Below are positions 54,526 to 64,000 of a stretch of DNA of 64,000 bases, piece after piece. The translations under genes were made by a program, and so were the position numbers. The notes beneath the pieces were generated by a model, which was not told the origin of the DNA, did not search any database, and was given only the letters and a program-made list of their open reading frames with translations. Position 1 is the stretch's first letter; each line of letters begins with the position of its first letter. Source of the DNA: Lachnospiraceae bacterium (GTDB taxonomy: Bacteria > Bacillota > Clostridia > Lachnospirales > Lachnospiraceae); the NCBI GenBank assembly GCA_021200995.1, contig JAJQFS010000030.1, positions 62,001-126,000 on the forward strand, written 5' to 3'.

Positions 54526-54987
54526 TCAATTCCACTCATCCTGCAGCTTTCTGCGGATCCGGTACAGCTTGTCACTGATGCTTTTATTACTCATATGCAG
54601 ATCCTCCGCCAGCTCCGGTATGGTCGCCCCTCCCAGGAAATACGCCCGGGCCAGCTTCTCTGAACGCGAACGGTACAGACTGTGCAGCAGATCCTCCATC
54701 ACGACCATATCATAGGCCGGATCCTCCGCCGCAATACTGTCCTCATACAGCTTCTCCGTGCGTGTATAAACGCGCCTGTAATACCTGCGGCAGATATGCT
54801 TCGCTGTCAGCAAAAGCCATCCACAGGGGTTGGGATGCTCCCGCAGCATATCCCACTGCTCCAGCGCTTCCGCGTATGTCTCCTGCACCATGTCCTCCAC
54901 CTCGTGGGCGTCCGCCATCCGCGCGAGGAGGTATTGGCTTACCATCTGGCTGGTGCGCTTATAAAAGCTCTCGAAATCCTCTTCCAT
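54526..54987 (-). CDS. Sigma-70 family (ECF-like) RNA polymerase sigma factor
   Basis: A 153-aa protein with a region-2 segment (HEVEDMVQETYAEALEQWD) and a region-4 helix-turn-helix (TIPELAEDLHMSNKSISDKL). It is short and lacks region 1 and 3, as in ECF sigma factors. Its ATG overlaps the stop of the HTH gene by one base. Because it lies just beyond the pilus genes in the same direction, it may control pilus expression, but no anti-sigma gene is visible. Confidence 0.82.
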   Translation of the reverse strand: MEEDFESFYKRTSQMVSQYLLARMADAHEVEDMVQETYAEALEQWDMLREHPNPCGWLLLTAKHICRRYYRRVYTRTEKLYEDSIAAEDPAYDMVVMEDLLHSLYRSRSEKLARAYFLGGATIPELAEDLHMSNKSISDKLYRIRRKLQDEWN

Positions 54988-55292
54988 CAGTTGGAAAAAT
55001 ATCTCTTTTTGAAAAATTCATCCAGCGATATCTGCAGTCCGTTGCAGATCCGCCAGATCGTCACAATCCCCGGATTGTGACTTCTGCCGTAAAGGATGCT
55101 CTTGAGTGTGGATGGGTGAACACCGGAGAGATGGGAAAGATCCGTGACGGTGCTTCTTATAGCTCTGCACTCTAGTAAATTCCTGCGGATAAGCTGTTCG
55201 ACAAGCCGCTTTTCGTCCGCCTTGATCCGGTCGGTCCGGCAGCTTTTCTTTGGTAAGAGATTATCTTCTGTAAAAGAATGCGGGTTATCCAT
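54987..55292 (-). CDS. Helix-turn-helix (XRE-type) DNA-binding protein
   Basis: From the ATG at 55292 (MDNPHSFTEDN), with AAGGAG upstream, it is 101 aa. The helix-turn-helix is TVTDLSHLSGVHPSTLKSIL, followed by a typical XRE recognition-end block, WRICNGLQISLDEFF. The final TGATG overlaps the sigma factor start, so the pair is translationally coupled. The gap of 139 bases to the sortase gene upstream may hold a separate promoter. Confidence 0.82.
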   Translation of the reverse strand: MDNPHSFTEDNLLPKKSCRTDRIKADEKRLVEQLIRRNLLECRAIRSTVTDLSHLSGVHPSTLKSILYGRSHNPGIVTIWRICNGLQISLDEFFKKRYFSN

Positions 55293-55431
55293 ATAATCTC
55301 CTTCCCCGGAAGTATCCCCGTTTCGACAAAATACTCCCGTAAAGGACATTATACACGATAACCCGCAAAAAGGTAGACGATATGTCGTCACTTTAGCTTT
55401 GCAAAACTTTTTTCACAGAAATTTCCGGACT

Positions 55432-56028
55432 TTACTCCGTCCTGACGCAGCGAATCGCTCGCCGCGCCCTTCCCCCTGTCGTGCATGTAAAAAGTGTCAG
55501 ATCCCAGTCATCGTCCCCCGTAAGTCCTTCCATCTCATCGATCTGATCCGGCTCCAGCGTATCAAGCCGTATCACCTCATAATAATAAGAATTGCCGTCC
55601 ATGTCGGTAAAAATGACGATCGTCCCGACCAGAACCGTTTTCAGCGCGGAAAAATGCTGTCGGTAATTGTGACCCGCAATCACCAGATCGTTCGTGCAGA
55701 CACTGCCATAATAGCGCCCAGGCGCGATTTCCAGCCCCTCATAGCTCCACTCTGCCATGACCGGCAGCTCCAGCCCCAGCGCGGGCACCGAGAGATAGCC
55801 GATATAGTCCCACCCGTCGATTTCCACCACAGTCATCCCGATGCTGTTGTCCGTTTCGGAGCTGATTTCTTCTTGCGTGACAACCGCGGATTTCACCTGT
55901 ACCAGAGCTTCCGATACGGCCTCACCGGCCTTCATCTCCTCCCACAACTGAAACAGAGTAAGGGACAGTGCGGTCAAAAGCAGCACTGTCCCTGTTATCA
56001 TCAGACCGATCCCGATCCTACGCTTCAT
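55432..56028 (-). CDS. Sortase family protein (third sortase of the pilus locus)
   Basis: A 198-aa membrane-anchored transpeptidase with an N-terminal hydrophobic helix (IGLMITGTVLLLTALSLTLF). The catalytic residues are visible: His in VIAGHNY, Cys in TLFTCTTGG and Arg in the following GRARRAIRC. It is smaller than the two class C sortases and lacks a C-terminal membrane helix, so it may attach finished pili to the wall rather than polymerise them. Its start lies 11 bases inside the minor pilin gene. Confidence 0.85.
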   Translation of the reverse strand: MKRRIGIGLMITGTVLLLTALSLTLFQLWEEMKAGEAVSEALVQVKSAVVTQEEISSETDNSIGMTVVEIDGWDYIGYLSVPALGLELPVMAEWSYEGLEIAPGRYYGSVCTNDLVIAGHNYRQHFSALKTVLVGTIVIFTDMDGNSYYYEVIRLDTLEPDQIDEMEGLTGDDDWDLTLFTCTTGGRARRAIRCVRTE

Positions 56029-56785
56029 CTTTGCCGCTCCTCTTTAATCCGCCGCCAAAAGCCAGAAGCCAGCCGGTCAGAAATACCGCCATACCAATCC
56101 CAGCGATCAGGAAAATCGGCCAGAGAACCGCGCCGGTCTGCGGCAGAATAAGACTCGTATCCGTTTGCGCATCCGTCGTGCTTCCCGTTGTTTTCTTCGG
56201 CGTCTTTGGAGTCTCTTCGGAAGGCTGATTCAGCGTTTCCACCTTTGGCGAGGCGTCTACATCATAGATCAGCGTTCCGTTCACCGACAACGGAACCGTG
56301 ACGACAAAAGGACTTACCTGATAATACCCCTCCGCGGCCTCTGTCTGCACCACCAGGTACACGCCCACCGGCAGGTTTGAGAAAGTCACGGCTCCGTTTG
56401 CTCCGACCTGCGCTGTCTGAGAAGCGTTCAACTGCCAGTAGTCTGCATATGTGGCCAGCGTCGCTGCCAGCGCGGAATCATTGGGGGAAATATCGTCAAG
56501 GTCCACACCGCTGTTTGAAAAATCAGATGTCAGAACATACGAATTCTGTCCGACAGCGTCCACGTACACATATGCCACGCGGTAAAGTGCCAGCTTTCCG
56601 CCGCCCACGGTTTCCCCGACCGAGTTGCGCATGGTGATTGTGACAGACCCGCTTTTGTCCGGATCGATTACTTCCGCTGTCTGCGACGCCAGCACATTCA
56701 CGCGCATTCCCAGAAACACCAGCGCTGCAGTCAATACAGCCATACACAGCCTCAGCCCTTTTTTCAGATTTTGTTTCAGCTCCAT
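56018..56785 (-). CDS. LPXTG-anchored minor pilin
   Basis: From the ATG at 56785, with GGAGG upstream, it is 255 aa. It has a signal peptide ending near VLASQ, a Cna-B/SpaA-like domain (SGSVTITMRNSVGETVGGGK, GVYLVVQTEAAEGYY), a Pro/Thr-rich neck (EETPKTPKKTTGS) and a sorting signal with LPQTG, a hydrophobic helix and a basic tail. The size suggests the base or anchor pilin. A longer frame to 56992 overlaps the upstream gene. Confidence 0.86.
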   Translation of the reverse strand: MELKQNLKKGLRLCMAVLTAALVFLGMRVNVLASQTAEVIDPDKSGSVTITMRNSVGETVGGGKLALYRVAYVYVDAVGQNSYVLTSDFSNSGVDLDDISPNDSALAATLATYADYWQLNASQTAQVGANGAVTFSNLPVGVYLVVQTEAAEGYYQVSPFVVTVPLSVNGTLIYDVDASPKVETLNQPSEETPKTPKKTTGSTTDAQTDTSLILPQTGAVLWPIFLIAGIGMAVFLTGWLLAFGGGLKRSGKDEA

Positions 56786-57324
56786 TCTGTTTTTCCTCCA
56801 TCCGGAGACGAAACGGTCTCCTTTTTCCTTTCTCCCAGAGCGATCAGCAAAAGTCCCAGGAGAAAAATCCCGCCGATACACAGCGCGCCGCCCACCGTCG
56901 ATATCGCCGACATCAGCGGCCCCAGCGCTGGGATAATCGCCACCACGCGTCCCATCACCCGCGCGCAAGAAACAGTTTCTCCGTTTCCCCATCCGTCCGT
57001 GACATACATGCTTTGCGCCTGTTCATCATTCTCTCCCACCAGACGCAGCGCCACACCGCCGCCGTCCGCGCTGTAATACGTCACCATATCGCCAACAGCC
57101 AGATCCCCTCCCACAGCCTGCTCCACGTAAATCAGGCTACCCTCCGCCACTTCGGGACCATAATTAAAATCAATGGCGGCATAGATCTGCAGCCCCATGG
57201 CGCGGGGAACTGTCAGAGGCACACAGAGCAACAATATGCATACCAACAGGCAAATGCCCGCCGTCTCCAGAACAGTGCCTGCTCCGGTTTTTCTCATAGT
57301 CTCCCGTTTTGTCCCTTTTCTCAT
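56776..57324 (-). CDS. Signal-peptidase-I-like protein of the pilus locus (catalytic residues missing)
   Basis: A 182-aa protein with N- and C-terminal transmembrane helices around a SipW-like domain. The alignment is clear at GSLIYVEQ and VGDMVTYY. Where active enzymes have SGSMEP, this reads IDFNYGP (51-57), with Asn54 in place of the Ser nucleophile. Where they have HRV, it reads LRLV (93-96), lacking the His. This matches S. pyogenes SipA, a non-proteolytic pilus assembly factor. It overlaps the minor pilin start by 10 bases. Confidence 0.82.
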   Translation of the reverse strand: MRKGTKRETMRKTGAGTVLETAGICLLVCILLLCVPLTVPRAMGLQIYAAIDFNYGPEVAEGSLIYVEQAVGGDLAVGDMVTYYSADGGGVALRLVGENDEQAQSMYVTDGWGNGETVSCARVMGRVVAIIPALGPLMSAISTVGGALCIGGIFLLGLLLIALGERKKETVSSPDGGKTEWS

Positions 57325-57397: not shown

Positions 57398-58306
57398 TCA
57401 GGATTGCCCGCATCGCTCCCGTCTGGACAGCACCGCTCTCACCACCAGAATCTCCAGTGCTGTCAGAGCCAGTCCCATCAAAAGATAAAGCATGTAATAA
57501 TCCCGTATGGCTTGCAGAACCGCCGTCATCGCAGGATTGCTTACCGTTTCTTCCACATATTCGATCCGGTGTCCGCGCACCAGCAGGCGGTGCGTGTTCA
57601 CCCCGTAAGGCGTACAGGTATACAGCGTCACATAATCCTCGCCCTCCACTGGGCTAAGTGCAGCAAGAAGGGTGTCATAATCGTCCTCGTCGACCATCGG
57701 CAGGATCTGATCCACCTCATAGGCCAGAACCTCATCCAGAATATACAGATAAAAACAATCCCCGATTTCCAGCTGATCCAGGTCGGTGAACAGGCGCGCG
57801 CTGGGAAGCCCTCTGTGTCCCGCCAGTACGACGTGCGTTCCCTCCTCGCCGACCGGAAGCGAGGAGCCTTCCAGATGTCCCACGCCGGTCTCAAGGCTTT
57901 CTTCGTCCGTCCCGTGATAAATGGCCAGACGAATGTTAATTTTCGGGATGGAAATATAGCCCATCACGCCGTCCCCTGAGAGATTCAGCAGATTCCAATA
58001 CTCAGAATCTTCCTCCTCAACGCTCTCAGTATCAAACGCGTCCAGATATTCCGACAGCTCCATAATACCCTCATTATAGGCCGCGGCAGCTGCCCATTCT
58101 CCTGACAGATCTTCCGCTTCCGTCTCTGTCACAGCGGACTGATAGGAAGTGATCAGTCTGCTCTGCCTGAATGTATTCCACTGATTGGAAACCGCAGGAT
58201 AAATCAGGATTGCAAAACCAGTCAGAAACAGCAGGGCGAAAGCCATACCCGTCAGTCTCACCTTAAGCGGCTGTTTCTCATTCCTCCCCGCTTTCTTTCC
58301 TTTCAT
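57398..58306 (-). CDS. Class C sortase (pilin polymerase)
   Basis: A 302-aa class C sortase with two membrane helices (TGMAFALLFLTGFAILIY and one near the C-terminus). The catalytic His is in LAGHRGLP, the Cys in TLYTCTPYGVNTHRL and the Arg follows in LVRGHR. Class C enzymes join pilin subunits by lysine isopeptide bonds. The start lies 29 bases inside the upstream sortase gene, so the two are coupled. Confidence 0.95.
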   Translation of the reverse strand: MKGKKAGRNEKQPLKVRLTGMAFALLFLTGFAILIYPAVSNQWNTFRQSRLITSYQSAVTETEAEDLSGEWAAAAAYNEGIMELSEYLDAFDTESVEEEDSEYWNLLNLSGDGVMGYISIPKINIRLAIYHGTDEESLETGVGHLEGSSLPVGEEGTHVVLAGHRGLPSARLFTDLDQLEIGDCFYLYILDEVLAYEVDQILPMVDEDDYDTLLAALSPVEGEDYVTLYTCTPYGVNTHRLLVRGHRIEYVEETVSNPAMTAVLQAIRDYYMLYLLMGLALTALEILVVRAVLSRRERCGQS

Positions 58307-59198
58307 GCTTTTTGTCCCGGCCTCCCGATTTTTTCAGAAACAGATACAGCAGCGCAGTCAGCAGAGCCGTTACCGTAAGCCCTCCCAGCGCCCAGAGCAG
58401 ATAATGGGTATGAGTCGTCACCACAGAAACTGTCTGAGTCTCTTCCTCCACAGTCTCCTCTTCGTACTCCACACGATGACCCTGCACCAGCAGACGCTCG
58501 GTGTTCACCCCATAAGGCGTACAGCTCAGCAGCGTCACCAGATCCTGTCCTTCCACCACGGACAACGCCTCCGTATCCGTGGGCTCCACCACCAGAATCT
58601 GATCGACCTCATAGCAGAGCGTTGAATCCAGCACATAAATCAGGAAAACATCTCCCTCTTCCAGCAGATCCAGATTCGCGAACAGCTCCTGATTGGGAAG
58701 GCCTCTGTGTCCCGCAAGCACGGCATGCGTGCTTTCCCCGCCGACCGGCAGGGAACTGCCCTCCAGGTGCCCGACACCCTCCTGCAGCACCTCATCGGAT
58801 GTTGTGTGATAAATCGGCAGCTTCAGATCCAGGCTGGGAATAGAAACATAACCCATGATCCCGTCTCCTGCCAGATTGAGGCAGGCCATATACTCCTCGT
58901 CCGGTTCTTCCTGCGCTCCTGTAATCGTAAAGGAATCCGACAGTGTGGCGGTATGCAGCGTTTCATTATAAGCGTAAGCCCGTGCCCATTCCGCGCTGAA
59001 GTCCTCTCCCTGTGTTTCCAGCTCCGTGAGCGAAGAAGTATAGTCGCTCACCAACTGCTCCTGACGCCATTTATTCCATTGATTCGACGCCGCGGGGTAA
59101 AGCAGAATGCCCAGGCCAAGGAGAAAAAGAACGATACAGACAATCATCAGACCGGTATCCTTTTCTCTTTTCTCCTTTTTCGGCTTTCCTTTTTTCAC
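58278..59198 (-). CDS. Class C sortase (second pilin polymerase)
   Basis: A 306-aa paralogue of the next gene, sharing the same layout: N-terminal helix, SAEWARAYAYNE region, MGYVSIPSLDLKLPIYH, LAGHRGLPN with His, TLLSCTPYGVNTERL with Cys and Arg, and a C-terminal helix with a basic tail. Two class C sortases suggest separate roles for backbone and accessory pilins. It lies 10 bases downstream of the backbone pilin gene. Confidence 0.95.
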   Translation of the reverse strand: MKKGKPKKEKREKDTGLMIVCIVLFLLGLGILLYPAASNQWNKWRQEQLVSDYTSSLTELETQGEDFSAEWARAYAYNETLHTATLSDSFTITGAQEEPDEEYMACLNLAGDGIMGYVSIPSLDLKLPIYHTTSDEVLQEGVGHLEGSSLPVGGESTHAVLAGHRGLPNQELFANLDLLEEGDVFLIYVLDSTLCYEVDQILVVEPTDTEALSVVEGQDLVTLLSCTPYGVNTERLLVQGHRVEYEEETVEEETQTVSVVTTHTHYLLWALGGLTVTALLTALLYLFLKKSGGRDKKHERKESGEE

Positions 59199-59208
59199 AT
59201 CCGCCCCT

Positions 59209-61053
59209 TTATTGGTTTTTCATCCTGCGGCGATATCCCAGGTAGAGGCCCGCCGCGGTGATCATAATCACACAGCCGAGAATGGTGAACACGATGGTAC
59301 CCATGCCGCCGGTAGAGGGAAGGGAGATGATTTTGGTGTTCAGGATCTTCGTTTCCTCTTTGTCGGATAAAACCTCCAGTACGGTATCCGTCACAACCCC
59401 TTCACTGTCACTGACATATCCCACTTCAAAGGTAGAGGTATTGATGATTGTTCCGCTTTCATCGGAGATCACAATCTTCCAGCTTTGCAAAGTTCCATTC
59501 GTATTGTATGCGGCAGATATCACAATCGTATACATAGTTGTGTTCAATGTGTATCCTGTCGGCGCTTTGGTTTCTTTCAGATAATAAGTGCCTGTTGCCA
59601 GACTATAAATGGAAATTTGTCCGTCGCTGTCAGACTCAACGATGCATCCATCCGGGTATTTATCACTTGTGTATGTTTCATAGGAACCGGTTGCAGCGTT
59701 CTTTGTATACAATGTAAACTGAGCGCCCTCCAACGGATCTCTCACTTCATTACCTGCCCCGTCGTCAGTCGTCGCATTCCCCACTTTCGAGATGACTCTG
59801 GAAGTAGTCACGCCATCAATATCAAATGTATATGTGTATGTTTTATCATCCAGTTCAGCTGACTCTCTCTGCACGGTTGAATCGGTCGTATAATCCAGAA
59901 CCACATGGTTGTCATTACCATTTTCGGCCATCACGGCATTCTCATTTAATTCCGCGCTGTATGTAACAACCAGTTCTTTTCCTTCATAGTCATTCAGCGT
60001 ATAGGTATAAACTGTCTGTGCGCTCACAGTCTCAGTCAGCACAAAGTTTATGATCAGCGTTGTCACACCAGTGCCGGCATCTGCGGAAACGGTCACTTTA
60101 TAATCCGTATTTTCGGTGAGGGTAATGTATCCGTCAGCATCTGCATCCGGATAATTTGTATTTTCTGCGCCGACATACACCCTGACTACAATTCCGGTAT
60201 TTGTCGTATCCCCCGAACTGTTTTTTGTGATCAGAGTCAAGCCCTCAGAGAGGGTATCCGTCAGTTGAAAGACCGGATACTCTCCGCCATAATAGGGGAT
60301 ATTATCAACGGTTACCTGATAGTCGACAGTATCGCCAATATTTTTGGAGGTTGCGCTGTCATTGTCAGAAACATCGCCATTTGTAATTTTCTTATCAAGA
60401 TCCGGCGTGGCTGATTTTACCCAGGAGACGCCGTCTTTGATCATGTCAACGCCATTATCCTGAATCTCATTGCCGGTTCCTTCACTGTTTATTACATAAT
60501 AGTAGGAAACCACTGCCACGTTATAAACAACCGCTTCCGCATCCTTAATGATTGCCAGATAAGAACCAACCGGAACATCCGCTGTATACCCACTGTTTGA
60601 AGTGTCTTCGAGCAACGAATAAGAAGCTGCGGCGTTTGCATTGTTTGTCGCAGTCCTGATTTCATCAGCCGTCACAGCGGAGCCGCCTGCAATCAGATTT
60701 CGTACTGTATCCAACAGTGCTTCTGTCAGTCCATAACTATAAGTCGTATTTCCTGAAGAATCCGTTTCAGTTTTCTCAATATCGTCCAGATCAATGCAGC
60801 TGTAAAGAGATACATATCCCTTAAAATTATCATTGCTGTCATAAGACGCCAGAATAATCGGGTACGCTGTTACAGTCAGGCCGCTCTCTTTGGCTTCATC
60901 CTCAATGCCATAGACGGTGATCGTCCCCGTATCATCGCTGCCGCCGTATACCCTGTCGCTTCCGGCACTTGCCGCCGTCACCGGCAGGCTCATTGTAAGA
61001 ATCAGAACCATTGCCAGCAGCAGTGATCCAAGTTTTTTTGCTTTCTTTTTCAT
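59209..61053 (-). CDS. Isopeptide-forming backbone pilin, LPXTG-anchored
   Basis: A 614-aa shaft pilin. It has a signal peptide (LLLAMVLILTMSLPVTAASA), several immunoglobulin-like domains with Asp/Asn-rich strands, a C-terminal SpaA/Cna-B domain with the E-box YYLKETKAPTGY, and a sorting signal LPSTG with a membrane helix and RRRMKNQ tail. TPDLDKKI around residue 215 may hold the pilin-motif Lys. GGAGG lies before the ATG. First gene after the tip adhesin. Confidence 0.93.
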   Translation of the reverse strand: MKKKAKKLGSLLLAMVLILTMSLPVTAASAGSDRVYGGSDDTGTITVYGIEDEAKESGLTVTAYPIILASYDSNDNFKGYVSLYSCIDLDDIEKTETDSSGNTTYSYGLTEALLDTVRNLIAGGSAVTADEIRTATNNANAAASYSLLEDTSNSGYTADVPVGSYLAIIKDAEAVVYNVAVVSYYYVINSEGTGNEIQDNGVDMIKDGVSWVKSATPDLDKKITNGDVSDNDSATSKNIGDTVDYQVTVDNIPYYGGEYPVFQLTDTLSEGLTLITKNSSGDTTNTGIVVRVYVGAENTNYPDADADGYITLTENTDYKVTVSADAGTGVTTLIINFVLTETVSAQTVYTYTLNDYEGKELVVTYSAELNENAVMAENGNDNHVVLDYTTDSTVQRESAELDDKTYTYTFDIDGVTTSRVISKVGNATTDDGAGNEVRDPLEGAQFTLYTKNAATGSYETYTSDKYPDGCIVESDSDGQISIYSLATGTYYLKETKAPTGYTLNTTMYTIVISAAYNTNGTLQSWKIVISDESGTIINTSTFEVGYVSDSEGVVTDTVLEVLSDKEETKILNTKIISLPSTGGMGTIVFTILGCVIMITAAGLYLGYRRRMKNQ

Positions 61054-61157: not shown

Positions 61158-61186
61158 AGCGGGAGACCGTTTTTCAGGTCCCCGCT
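61158..61186. other. Hairpin straddling the tip adhesin stop codon
   Basis: AGCGGGAGACC (61158-61168) pairs with GGTCCCCGCT (61177-61186), ten pairs with one bulged base. In the direction of the pilin genes there is no T-run, so it is not a normal terminator; on the plus strand it is followed by seven T. It may reduce readthrough, protect mRNA ends or terminate antisense transcription. Confidence 0.55.
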
Positions 61187-64000
61187 TTTTTTCGCTTTCT
61201 GCACATCCACAGTCCCGCCGCTGTAAAGATCAGCACACAGCCAAAGAGTGTGATCCACAGCATCGGTACACTGTATCCGCCGGTGGACGGCAGGGTGTAC
61301 TGCGTGTAGTTCGGAATGTAATACTTCGTATTGCCGTCCGCATCCGTTGTGGAATAGGAAATTCCACTTGTCAGTGTGAAGGTCTGCGTTTTTGTATCCA
61401 CTTCCACTAACCAGTAATTTCTGGCCAGCAGGGTGTAGCCGCCCGGCGCTTTTGTTTCTACCAGATAATATGTTCCGCTTTCGAGAAGTTCGTAATTGAA
61501 GCTTCCATCATCAAGATTCACCGTGTAGAATATCACTTCTCCGCTGCTGTTGCTGATTGCGGTATAAAGTGCATCATCGCTGTCCACCTGTATTTTCCCT
61601 GTTGAGGTGAAGCTTACATCATACGGATCATACAGCTGGAATACCGCGCCGGAAAGCAGCTGGTCAGCTGTCAGACTGTCAAAGTCTGTGTCCGCGCCAA
61701 TCCCTACTCCGTCAATCTTGGTCAGGGAAATGGTCATCTTATTATAATTGGTCACAGTCACATGATCGGTGGTCTGCGTGTTGGTGGACGTCGGGTTTAC
61801 CTCACTTGTTTTCGCATCCGAAGGAATGTTCAGAATCCAGGCTGCGTAAGTTACAGTGTTGCCGTCTCCGTCTGTTCCGGTATAGGTATTTGTGGCGTCC
61901 GTCACATTGGTACTGTCCGCGTCCGCGGAAGCCAGGTCATACTGCTCATCCGTAGAAACTTCCACGATGATATATTCCTGGAAATATAACAGGTCTTCCA
62001 GGCTTGCCTTGCCGCCAGAATCAGTCGTCAGGGTCGCAATCAGTTTACTTTCATCCAGCGTTTCCACAGTATCAGCCGTACCTGCCGCATAGGGTCCGTA
62101 TACTTTGAAGATCGTCCCTTTCACTGGCGCGCCGTCCGAATCCTGCTTGGTGATTTCCAGATCGCGGTACAGCACCAGGCCGATATCCTTGGAGAGATCA
62201 TAAATCCCGTCGCTGGTGGCGTAGAGGAAGAATTTCTCCGAGGTAACCGTTGTGGAAGTTCCATCGATTATACTCGTGCCGGTTACATTGCTGTCCGCCA
62301 GCACACTGCCCATATATGCCGCAAAGCTGCTGCCCGATGTATCATAGAGACTGGACGGGTTGATTGAGTAAATAGAATTTACCGCAGTGCCGTCGCTCGT
62401 CTGCGCCCGCGTGGTCGTCACACTATACTTCACGCCGCTTACGCCGCCAATGGCCGCTACCAGCTGGTAATACGTGGCGCTGGAGACGCCGGCCAGCTTG
62501 CTGTAAATAATTCCGCTTTCATCATAGGCGTCCGCCTCATCTGTCATATTGGAACTGAGGCTGGCGGCGTCCAGACCGGTAAAGTGGAAACGCCACATGC
62601 TCGTCCCTGATACAGCTGCGGTCAGGGTCTCTCCCAGCTGCAGACCGGTATAGGTACGCAGGGAGACAGATGCCGTGTTCAGAAGAGCTGATACGATTGC
62701 ATAGTCTGCATAATAGTTGGTACGGCTGTTATAATAATCCGAATAAGCCAGAATATCGCTTGCCGAGCCGCTGCTGCCGCCGCTGTATTCTCCGCTCAAT
62801 GTCACATCTTCCGCATCCTGAATGCCGTCGCCGTCAGCGTCAATCCAGAACATGCCGCCTACATCAACAGGTTCCGAAGAAAGCACGGCATAGACGCGGT
62901 TGCTCGCCTGGCTCTGCGTTGCTGTAGAGCTTCCCTTCGTATAACAGAATGTGTAGCAGTTATATGTCGCCTGATGAATGGCGGCTTCCAGATCATCATC
63001 CGACATTTCCGGAACCGTGGTCTTATAAGTCACGATCAGCTTCGCGCCGGGCGCCAACGAATAATTGTTGTCTACCACAATAGCAAACGCTGTGATGCTT
63101 CCGTCAGCAGGCTTTGTAGTAGTCCAATTTCCGGCATATGTCTCTTTCGTCTCAAAGGCAGACATCATAGCATTGACATCGCCGCTGTCATCAAGCGCTT
63201 CAGTGTAGTACCAGATGGTATAGTCATCGCCTTCCGTCAGGGGCGTTTCATTTCCGTTTTTATCCCGGATGATCACAGATTCAATTTCACTGTAAACAAG
63301 CGTCCACCTGTTCGTCGAACTTCCGCTGGTATCTGTATGGAAATCCAGGCCGCCCTCCTGTGGGATCACATCCATCACCATCAGATTATGAAGGGAATCC
63401 TGATCATTTCCATTGGTCATCGTCAGGCGGAACTGAACCCATCCCGTTGATTCGCTGTCGGTGACTGATGCTTTTCCACTGCGGGACCATACATCTCCAT
63501 CCTGGTCCCCCTGAATCTCTTTCAGCACACTGACATTGTCAGTCGCGATGTACGAAACTGGCGCGGTCGCCGTCAGATAACCGTAATAGCTGCTCAGATC
63601 CAACATATCCTGCAGAATTTGATCAGCTGACGTGGAACCGAGACCTTCCGCCCAGAGAAGGGTATCCGCGCTCTTAAACACAGACGGAACTGTATTATCC
63701 TTATATTTTGTTCCGCTGTCAGTGCTGGTCACCCAAGCAGTGTTGCTTATATCGGCGCTGCTGGTCAGATAATTGACAATGGTGGTAGTCATGCTGGCCT
63801 CCAGCGTCAGCTGTACCGTCCCGCCCGCAGCGAGGAAACCTGTCGTCGTGATAGCCAACAGGTTATACCCATCCTGCGTCACCAGCTGTACCTCCTCGAT
63901 CTCAAGCCCGCTGTTTTCGGTGATGATCTGCAGATTTCCCGCATATTGAATGCTTTCGCTTGCCGTGCTGATTTCCAGTCCCTGCGGCAGCAGGTCGATG
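61174..64000 (-). CDS. Large tip/adhesin-type pilin, LPXTG-anchored (5' end beyond window)
   Basis: At least 940 residues are visible; the frame stays open to the right edge, so an apparent GTG start at 63882 is internal. It contains beta-rich repeat-like regions, an SdrD-like block (GMFWIDADGDGIQDAEDV), two SpaA/Cna-B domains near the C-terminus (DLEITKQDSDGAPVKGTIFK and LTKIDGVGIG), an E-box YYLVETKAPGGY, and a sorting signal LPSTG followed by a helix and RKRKKAGT. First gene of the visible pilus operon and its likely tip or host-binding subunit. Confidence 0.88.
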   Translation of the reverse strand, partial: IDLLPQGLEISTASESIQYAGNLQIITENSGLEIEEVQLVTQDGYNLLAITTTGFLAAGGTVQLTLEASMTTTIVNYLTSSADISNTAWVTSTDSGTKYKDNTVPSVFKSADTLLWAEGLGSTSADQILQDMLDLSSYYGYLTATAPVSYIATDNVSVLKEIQGDQDGDVWSRSGKASVTDSESTGWVQFRLTMTNGNDQDSLHNLMVMDVIPQEGGLDFHTDTSGSSTNRWTLVYSEIESVIIRDKNGNETPLTEGDDYTIWYYTEALDDSGDVNAMMSAFETKETYAGNWTTTKPADGSITAFAIVVDNNYSLAPGAKLIVTYKTTVPEMSDDDLEAAIHQATYNCYTFCYTKGSSTATQSQASNRVYAVLSSEPVDVGGMFWIDADGDGIQDAEDVTLSGEYSGGSSGSASDILAYSDYYNSRTNYYADYAIVSALLNTASVSLRTYTGLQLGETLTAAVSGTSMWRFHFTGLDAASLSSNMTDEADAYDESGIIYSKLAGVSSATYYQLVAAIGGVSGVKYSVTTTRAQTSDGTAVNSIYSINPSSLYDTSGSSFAAYMGSVLADSNVTGTSIIDGTSTTVTSEKFFLYATSDGIYDLSKDIGLVLYRDLEITKQDSDGAPVKGTIFKVYGPYAAGTADTVETLDESKLIATLTTDSGGKASLEDLLYFQEYIIVEVSTDEQYDLASADADSTNVTDATNTYTGTDGDGNTVTYAAWILNIPSDAKTSEVNPTSTNTQTTDHVTVTNYNKMTISLTKIDGVGIGADTDFDSLTADQLLSGAVFQLYDPYDVSFTSTGKIQVDSDDALYTAISNSSGEVIFYTVNLDDGSFNYELLESGTYYLVETKAPGGYTLLARNYWLVEVDTKTQTFTLTSGISYSTTDADGNTKYYIPNYTQYTLPSTGGYSVPMLWITLFGCVLIFTAAGLWMCRKRKKAGT

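What the first reader, a model, noticed from the sequence alone, without database searches (positions are those of the whole stretch)
56776..57324. Signal peptidase in the pilus locus has lost its catalytic residues
Seen: where SipW/LepB-like enzymes have SGSMEP, this protein has IDFNYGP, so the Ser nucleophile is Asn; where the His/Lys base is expected, the sequence is LRLV. Both transmembrane helices and the surrounding fold persist. Known: S. pyogenes SipA is a similar dead signal peptidase essential for pilus assembly. Inferred: an independent or shared origin of the same chaperone-like role in gut Clostridia.
Basis: partly seen in the sequence, partly recalled or inferred. Interest (0 to 1): 0.56.

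Follow-up and report, generated by a model that had tools for sequence, protein, structure and literature searches.

The report
Dead signal peptidase in pilus locus
A gut bacterium's pilus gene cluster carries a membrane protein that was once a protein-cutting enzyme but has lost its cutting residues and is still conserved, so it probably now helps to build the pilus, as a protein of separate origin does in streptococci.

Summary
Window 56776-57324(-) encodes a homologue of SipW/SEC11-type (Ser-His-Asp) signal peptidases (hhalign 99.9%, E 6.7e-33) in which Ser is Asn54, His is Arg94 (Leu93 ungapped) and Asp is Trp112; its ectodomain has no Lys or His at all. Structural columns persist. It is not a lone decaying gene: G176, another genus of the family, has a syntenic locus whose peptidase is also dead (Asp, Gln, Glu; 41% identity; dN/dS about 0.2, saturated). 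Streptococcal SipA matches the Ser/Lys (LepB) branch instead, so the two are independent pseudoenzymes. In 397 family genomes, 21 loci carry the SrtC2-type sortase: all 18 with BsaA/TasA-like SipW substrates have a live SipW-type peptidase in the genome; the three without substrates have a dead one (2) or none (1). The window locus is a hybrid, its front from SipW-type pilus loci and its back from peptidase-free ones. Best reading: substrate loss freed the peptidase from catalysis and it was kept as a SipA-like assembly factor. The function is inferred. G336 shows that SrtC2 pili can lack any peptidase.

The parts
56776..57324 (-). Dead SipW/SEC11-type signal peptidase homologue, 182 aa; probable start at codon 10 (57297)
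57163..57165 (-). Codon of Asn54, at the place of the catalytic Ser
57043..57048 (-). Codons of Leu93-Arg94, at the place of the catalytic His
56989..56991 (-). Codon of Trp112, at the place of the catalytic Asp
57398..58306 (-). SrtC2, class C sortase (257.7 bits, cut-off 160); orthologue of the second sortase of SipW-type pilus loci
58278..59198 (-). SrtC1, class C sortase (271.3 bits, cut-off 160); groups with the first sortase of SipW-type pilus loci (SH-aLRT 90)
59209..61053 (-). Major pilin, LPSTG, isopeptide D2 and SpaA domains
61174..64000 (-). 3' part of a giant LPSTG surface protein / tip adhesin that runs past the window end (open frame of at least 3268 aa)
56018..56785 (-). Basal/minor pilin, LPQTG; its start overlaps the end of the dead peptidase gene
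55432..56028 (-). Third, short sortase (srt3), TLFTC kept; partner of LPQTG pilins in peptidase-free loci

Best explanation
The gene encodes a pseudo-signal-peptidase of the SipW/SEC11 type. Shown by sequence: its ancestor is the live peptidase of two-sortase pilus loci, where it sits beside BsaA/TasA-like proteins. Inferred: the locus then recombined with the common peptidase-free pilus module (LPQTG basal pilin plus srt3), lost the BsaA-like genes, and cleavage was no longer needed. Shown: the membrane-anchored fold signature stayed under selection in two genera while the catalytic residues were replaced. Inferred: the protein still sits in the membrane beside the translocon and sortases and uses its peptide cleft to hold pilin tails (signal peptide or sorting-signal region) or to organise the sortases, so that SrtC2 and srt3 act in order; that is, it works like streptococcal SipA. 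Pilin signal peptides are presumably cut by the genome's Ser/Lys-type peptidases (L053, L054).
For: Loss of Ser, His and Asp with structural columns kept. A second dead orthologue, in synteny, in another genus, the two forming one clade (100/98) nested among pilus-locus peptidases. dN 0.60, dS 2.85. The longest run identical in the pair is YYSADGGGV (83-91), just before the lost His; 491 of 20000 shuffles reach it. Of 21 SrtC2 loci from 397 genomes, 18 with BsaA-like genes have a live SipW-type peptidase (17 in cis, 1 in trans), while 3 without have a dead one or none. G000 has no match to TIGR04090, PF12389 or TIGR04088. Gene fusion of a live SipW-type peptidase with a class B sortase in another genus, both over curated cut-off, shows that the two can work side by side. 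The SipA precedent: dead, essential for pilus polymerisation (PMC4049620).
Against: No experiment. G336 has a SrtC2 pilus locus without any peptidase, and three other pilus loci of the same genome have none within the stretch read, so pili as such do not need it. The peptidase (39%) is less conserved between the two loci than the sortases (50-62%), though more than the pilins (30-32%). dS is saturated. Only two members of the clade were found. The class B sortase that goes with SipA is absent. The AlphaFold model was unusable, so the peptide cleft was not tested.
Confidence: 0.6

Rival explanations
1. Relic: once the BsaA-like substrates were lost the peptidase lost all function, and the gene persists only because it is overlapped and translationally coupled to the basal pilin gene.
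For: Its substrates are gone and a related locus has lost the gene altogether. The other three pilus loci of the genome do without it. Its 3' end overlaps the pilin start by ten bases.
Against: Intact, frame-conserved gene in two genera at 41% identity with dN/dS about 0.2 and all structural Gly/Pro columns kept. A neutral gene would have gathered stops at such divergence.
Confidence: 0.22
2. Regulator or substrate guard: the dead protein binds signal peptides or pilin precursors and delays their cleavage by the Ser/Lys peptidase, so that pilins wait in the membrane for the sortases.
For: Membrane topology and the core of the peptidase fold are kept while catalysis is lost. Two Ser/Lys-type peptidases exist in the genome.
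Against: No direct evidence; hard to tell apart from the scaffold model in silico.
Confidence: 0.12
3. It is still an active peptidase that uses other residues.
For: The fold signature is kept.
Against: No Lys and no His in the ectodomain of the window protein. The residue at the Ser site differs between the two orthologues (Asn, Asp), as do those at the His and Asp sites.
Confidence: 0.03

Closest known systems
SipA/LepA of Streptococcus pyogenes FCT-2/3/4 pili (PDB 4n31, 4k8w)
   Same: Membrane signal peptidase homologue in a sortase pilus operon; nucleophile and base replaced (Asp48, Gly85 in SipA)
   Different: SipA is on the Ser/Lys (LepB) branch and goes with a class B polymerising sortase; this protein is on the SipW/SEC11 Ser-His-Asp branch and goes with two class C sortases and srt3
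SipW (Bacillus subtilis tapA-sipW-tasA; Clostridium perfringens sipW-bsaA) and the live SipW-type peptidases of Lachnospiraceae pilus loci
   Same: Same family and, for the pilus loci, the same gene neighbourhood
   Different: They keep Ser, His and Asp and sit beside TasA/BsaA-like substrates; here all three residues and the substrates are missing
Dead SipW-type homologues of genus g396 (G483, G545; a third homologue in G566)
   Same: Ser replaced (Ala, Asp) and His replaced by Ser; beside a small pilin-like protein; no BsaA-like gene seen
   Different: Asp and Arg kept; placed elsewhere in the tree, though one origin is not rejected (p-AU 0.25); no sortase in the stretch read

Membership tests
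SipW/ER-type signal peptidase I (TIGR02228, NF046067) | Homologous fold and sequence | tested here: met
   hhalign 99.9%, E 6.7e-33; NCBIfam E 8.6e-7 and 2e-6 but under the curated cut-offs
SipW/ER-type signal peptidase I (TIGR02228, NF046067) | Catalytic Ser, His and Asp | tested here: not met
   Asn54, Arg94 (or Leu93), Trp112; the three are at 100% in 83 live rows
SipW/ER-type signal peptidase I (TIGR02228, NF046067) | TasA/BsaA-type substrates in the genome | tested here: not met
   No match in G000 for TIGR04090, PF12389 or TIGR04088
Streptococcal SipA/LepA | Signal peptidase homologue in a pilus operon without its catalytic residues | tested here: met
Streptococcal SipA/LepA | Descent from the Ser/Lys (LepB) branch | tested here: not met
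   SipA hit by the Ser/Lys profile at 1.4e-20, not by the SipW profile; the window pair matches the Ser/Lys profile over 33 columns at 48.9% only
Streptococcal SipA/LepA | Partner class B polymerising sortase | tested here: not met
   Two class C sortases over cut-off, plus a short sortase below all class cut-offs
Streptococcal SipA/LepA | Needed for pilus polymerisation | not testable with these tools
   Needs a deletion mutant

The most novel reading that the evidence does not exclude
Signal peptidases of sortase pilus loci have been turned into non-catalytic pilus assembly factors more than once, on both branches of the superfamily (SipA on the Ser/Lys branch; this clade, and perhaps genus g396, on the SipW/SEC11 branch), each SipW-branch case following the loss of dedicated substrates.
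Probability: 0.42. Interest if true: 0.66.

Novelty: new variant of a known kind. Interest (0 to 1): 0.52.

Why it matters
How SipA helps a sortase polymerise pilins is unsolved, and binding tests with SipA failed (PMC4049620). An independent dead peptidase in pilus loci of commensal Clostridia, with live sister enzymes in near-identical loci, offers a natural comparison: what is conserved in both dead clades and lost from the live ones should mark the non-catalytic function. It also suggests a rule for annotation: the substrate genes beside a SipW-type peptidase predict whether it is alive.

Tried and rejected
Pfam gave no signal peptidase match for the window protein, and phmmer and a two-row profile against the PDB gave only chance matches. 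The AlphaFold model from two sequences had pLDDT 47 and was not searched. Two viral-contig scans and the plasmid search found no relative; the genome-contig scan found only the G176 record, L063, a Lachnospiraceae MAG. Considered: sequencing error or pseudogene; rejected because a second dead orthologue exists in synteny. Considered: the third sortase as tied to the dead peptidase; rejected because srt3 is found in 58 of 397 genomes and, in the 20 stretches read, every peptidase seen shows a Ser motif (its other residues were not checked). Considered: SrtC2 as needing a peptidase; weakened by G336. One origin of all four pilus-type dead rows (window, G176, G483, G545) is not rejected (p-AU 0.25), so repeated loss inside the pilus clade is not proven. 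In the 95-row set the link between dead state and missing BsaA-like genes (11 of 12 dead without; 12 of 83 live without) is inflated by kinship: only 3 independent pairs exist, and the sign test cannot reach 0.05. Some rows lack BsaA-like genes only because the contig ends near by; with those set aside it is 7 of 8 dead and 5 of 76 live. Six rows were dropped before these counts, all LepB-type: four Ser/Lys and two altered copies. L157 was counted as dead but keeps Ser and His. Literature searches for a dead SipW-type peptidase in pili found none in the open-access library.

Full report
What is there. The ORF at 56776-57324 on the minus strand (182 aa; probable start at codon 10, where the G176 homologue starts) lies in a run of same-strand pilus genes: giant LPSTG surface protein (61174 to beyond the window), major pilin (59209-61053), two class C sortases (58278-59198, 57398-58306), this gene, an LPQTG pilin (56018-56785, start overlapping this gene's end) and a short third sortase (55432-56028).

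Is it a dead signal peptidase? NCBIfam finds only weak similarity to SipW (8.6e-7) and to the archaeal-type signal peptidase I (2e-6), far under the cut-offs, and Pfam none. A profile of it and its closest relative matches live SipW-type peptidases with 99.9% probability over 156 columns. That match fixes the register: SGSMEP against DFNYGP and THR against LRL. In 83 live rows from the 101 mapped peptidase-like rows, Ser, Met, His, Arg, Gly, Asp and Asn of the active-site motifs never vary; the window has Asn54, Tyr55, Arg94 (Leu93 without a gap), Leu95 and Trp112 at the Ser, Met, His, Arg and Asp positions, and keeps that Gly and Asn. The structural columns P40, G44, P57, G62, S63, Y66, D79, G125, P132, G135 and G146 are kept. 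The ectodomain (44-138) has no Lys or His, so no relocated dyad is possible.

Is it conserved? No other species sampled from its genus has a match (none of G001-G008 at E 1e-3). In 397 family genomes the best match is G176 (another genus; E 3.4e-34; next best 2.3e-23). G176's protein is 41% identical and dead too (Asp, Gln and Glu at the three sites), in a locus with the same six genes in the same order. Identities between the loci: major pilin 30%, SrtC1 56%, SrtC2 62%, peptidase 39%, LPQTG pilin 32%, srt3 50%; peptidase dN 0.60, dS 2.85, saturated (blastp, hence 39 rather than the 41). Window and G176 form one clade (100/98) inside the group of pilus-locus peptidases (97/83) in a tree of 95 rows whose bootstrap had not settled. 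This favours selection on a non-catalytic role over decay.

What do the living relatives do? Of 76 distinct peptidase-like domains first collected, 64 keep Ser-His-Asp. In live pilus loci the peptidase lies downstream of major pilin, SrtC1 and SrtC2, with BsaA-like proteins in between; two of these in L126 match TIGR04090, 'BsaA family SipW-dependent biofilm matrix protein' (below its cut-off). Three of those read (L062, L099, L126) have an A-YF site like that of TasA, whose Phe at P2' hinders LepB, so that SipW is used (PMC10269814, abstract start in the listing). In C. perfringens a sipW mutant does not export BsaA (PMC7395162, passages).

The least biased test. sought SrtC2 orthologues in 397 family genomes without regard to peptidases. 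Scores split cleanly: 21 loci at 411 bits or more, the rest at 339 or less. Of the 21, 17 have a live SipW-type peptidase in the same cluster (in G199 about 15 kb away, fused to a class B sortase) and BsaA-like genes; one (G034:C83) has BsaA-like genes with the live peptidase on another contig; two (window, G176) have a dead peptidase and no BsaA-like gene nearby; one (G336) has neither. So 18 of 18 loci with substrates have a live enzyme in the genome, and 0 of 3 without substrates have one in the locus. The two dead loci are one evolutionary event, so this is a pattern and not a proof. G000 as a whole has no match for TIGR04090, PF12389 or TIGR04088; G176 has one TIGR04090 match and a live SipW-type peptidase (L066), each on another contig.

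How the locus arose. The short sortase srt3 is found in 58 of 397 genomes. Most of the 20 stretches read hold a module of adhesin, major pilin, one SrtC, LPQTG pilin and srt3; any peptidase there shows a Ser motif, and three such loci are in the window's own genome, with no peptidase in the stretch read. In the sortase tree the window's SrtC2 falls with SrtC2 of SipW-type loci (20 rows, SH-aLRT 99) and its SrtC1 with their SrtC1 (SH-aLRT 90), while the other SrtCs of this genome fall elsewhere (quick tree). The window locus is therefore best read as a hybrid: front end of a SipW-type locus, back end of a peptidase-free locus, the dead peptidase at the junction.

SipA compared. A Ser/Lys-type profile finds SipA (4n31, 1.4e-20) and LepA (4k8w, 3.9e-18) in the PDB, while the SipW-type profile finds only SEC11 chains. 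The window pair matches the Ser/Lys profile over 33 columns only, at 48.9%. The two dead proteins thus have separate origins. Both sit in pilus operons without catalytic residues; SipA is essential for polymerisation and its cleft is conserved (PMC4049620: abstract, section 8 and section 12 part 1 read). SipA goes with a class B sortase; here the sortases are class C.

Mechanism. Shown: loss of catalysis by sequence, conservation, operon context, descent from a live pilus-locus peptidase, absence of its substrates. Inferred: binding of pilin tails or sortases. Against a general need: G336 and the three sister loci. I therefore hold the assembly role at 0.6 and a relic at 0.22.

Other dead cases in the survey. 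Genus g396 has a SipW-type homologue with Ser to Ala or Asp and His to Ser, beside a small pilin-like gene, seen in G483 and G545; G566 has a 60% identical homologue whose active site I did not read. One origin with the window clade is not rejected (p-AU 0.25). Seven rows of about 320-445 aa in other genomes are a separate dead family (100/99), with no sortase in the stretches read.

Noticed in passing
L119:6183-7433 (G199) and the 406-442 aa rows of genus g188: A live SipW-type signal peptidase fused to a class B sortase in one protein, both domains over NCBIfam cut-offs in the copy tested; the other g188 rows have similar length but their second halves were not tested.
   Followed up: partly
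L101, L102, L103, L152, L170, L171, L172: Family of about 320-445 aa proteins with an N-terminal SipW-like domain lacking catalytic residues and a long charged tail, not near sortases.
   Followed up: partly
L098:1258-1767 and L160:3015-3521 (genus g396): A second SipW-type homologue with Ser and His replaced but Asp kept, directly downstream of a small pilin-like protein.
   Followed up: partly
L099:6652-7230 (G500) and L100:7458-8075 (G522): LepB-type peptidase copies next to a live SipW-type one in pilus loci, with Lys replaced by Arg and, in G500, Ser by Thr: possibly another case of lost catalysis, on the Ser/Lys branch.
   Followed up: no
window 61174-64000 and beyond (L057:9175-18981): Giant LPSTG surface protein, open frame of at least 3268 aa, upstream of the major pilin.
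   Followed up: no
G000 contigs C64, C83, C82 (L211, L212, L213): Three further pilus loci in the same genome (LPxTG protein, major pilin, one SrtC, LPQTG pilin, srt3), with no signal peptidase in the stretch read.
   Followed up: partly
window 54526-55391: A sigma-factor-like ORF and a small helix-turn-helix-like ORF directly downstream of the third sortase, possible regulators of the pilus operon (named by eye only).
   Followed up: no
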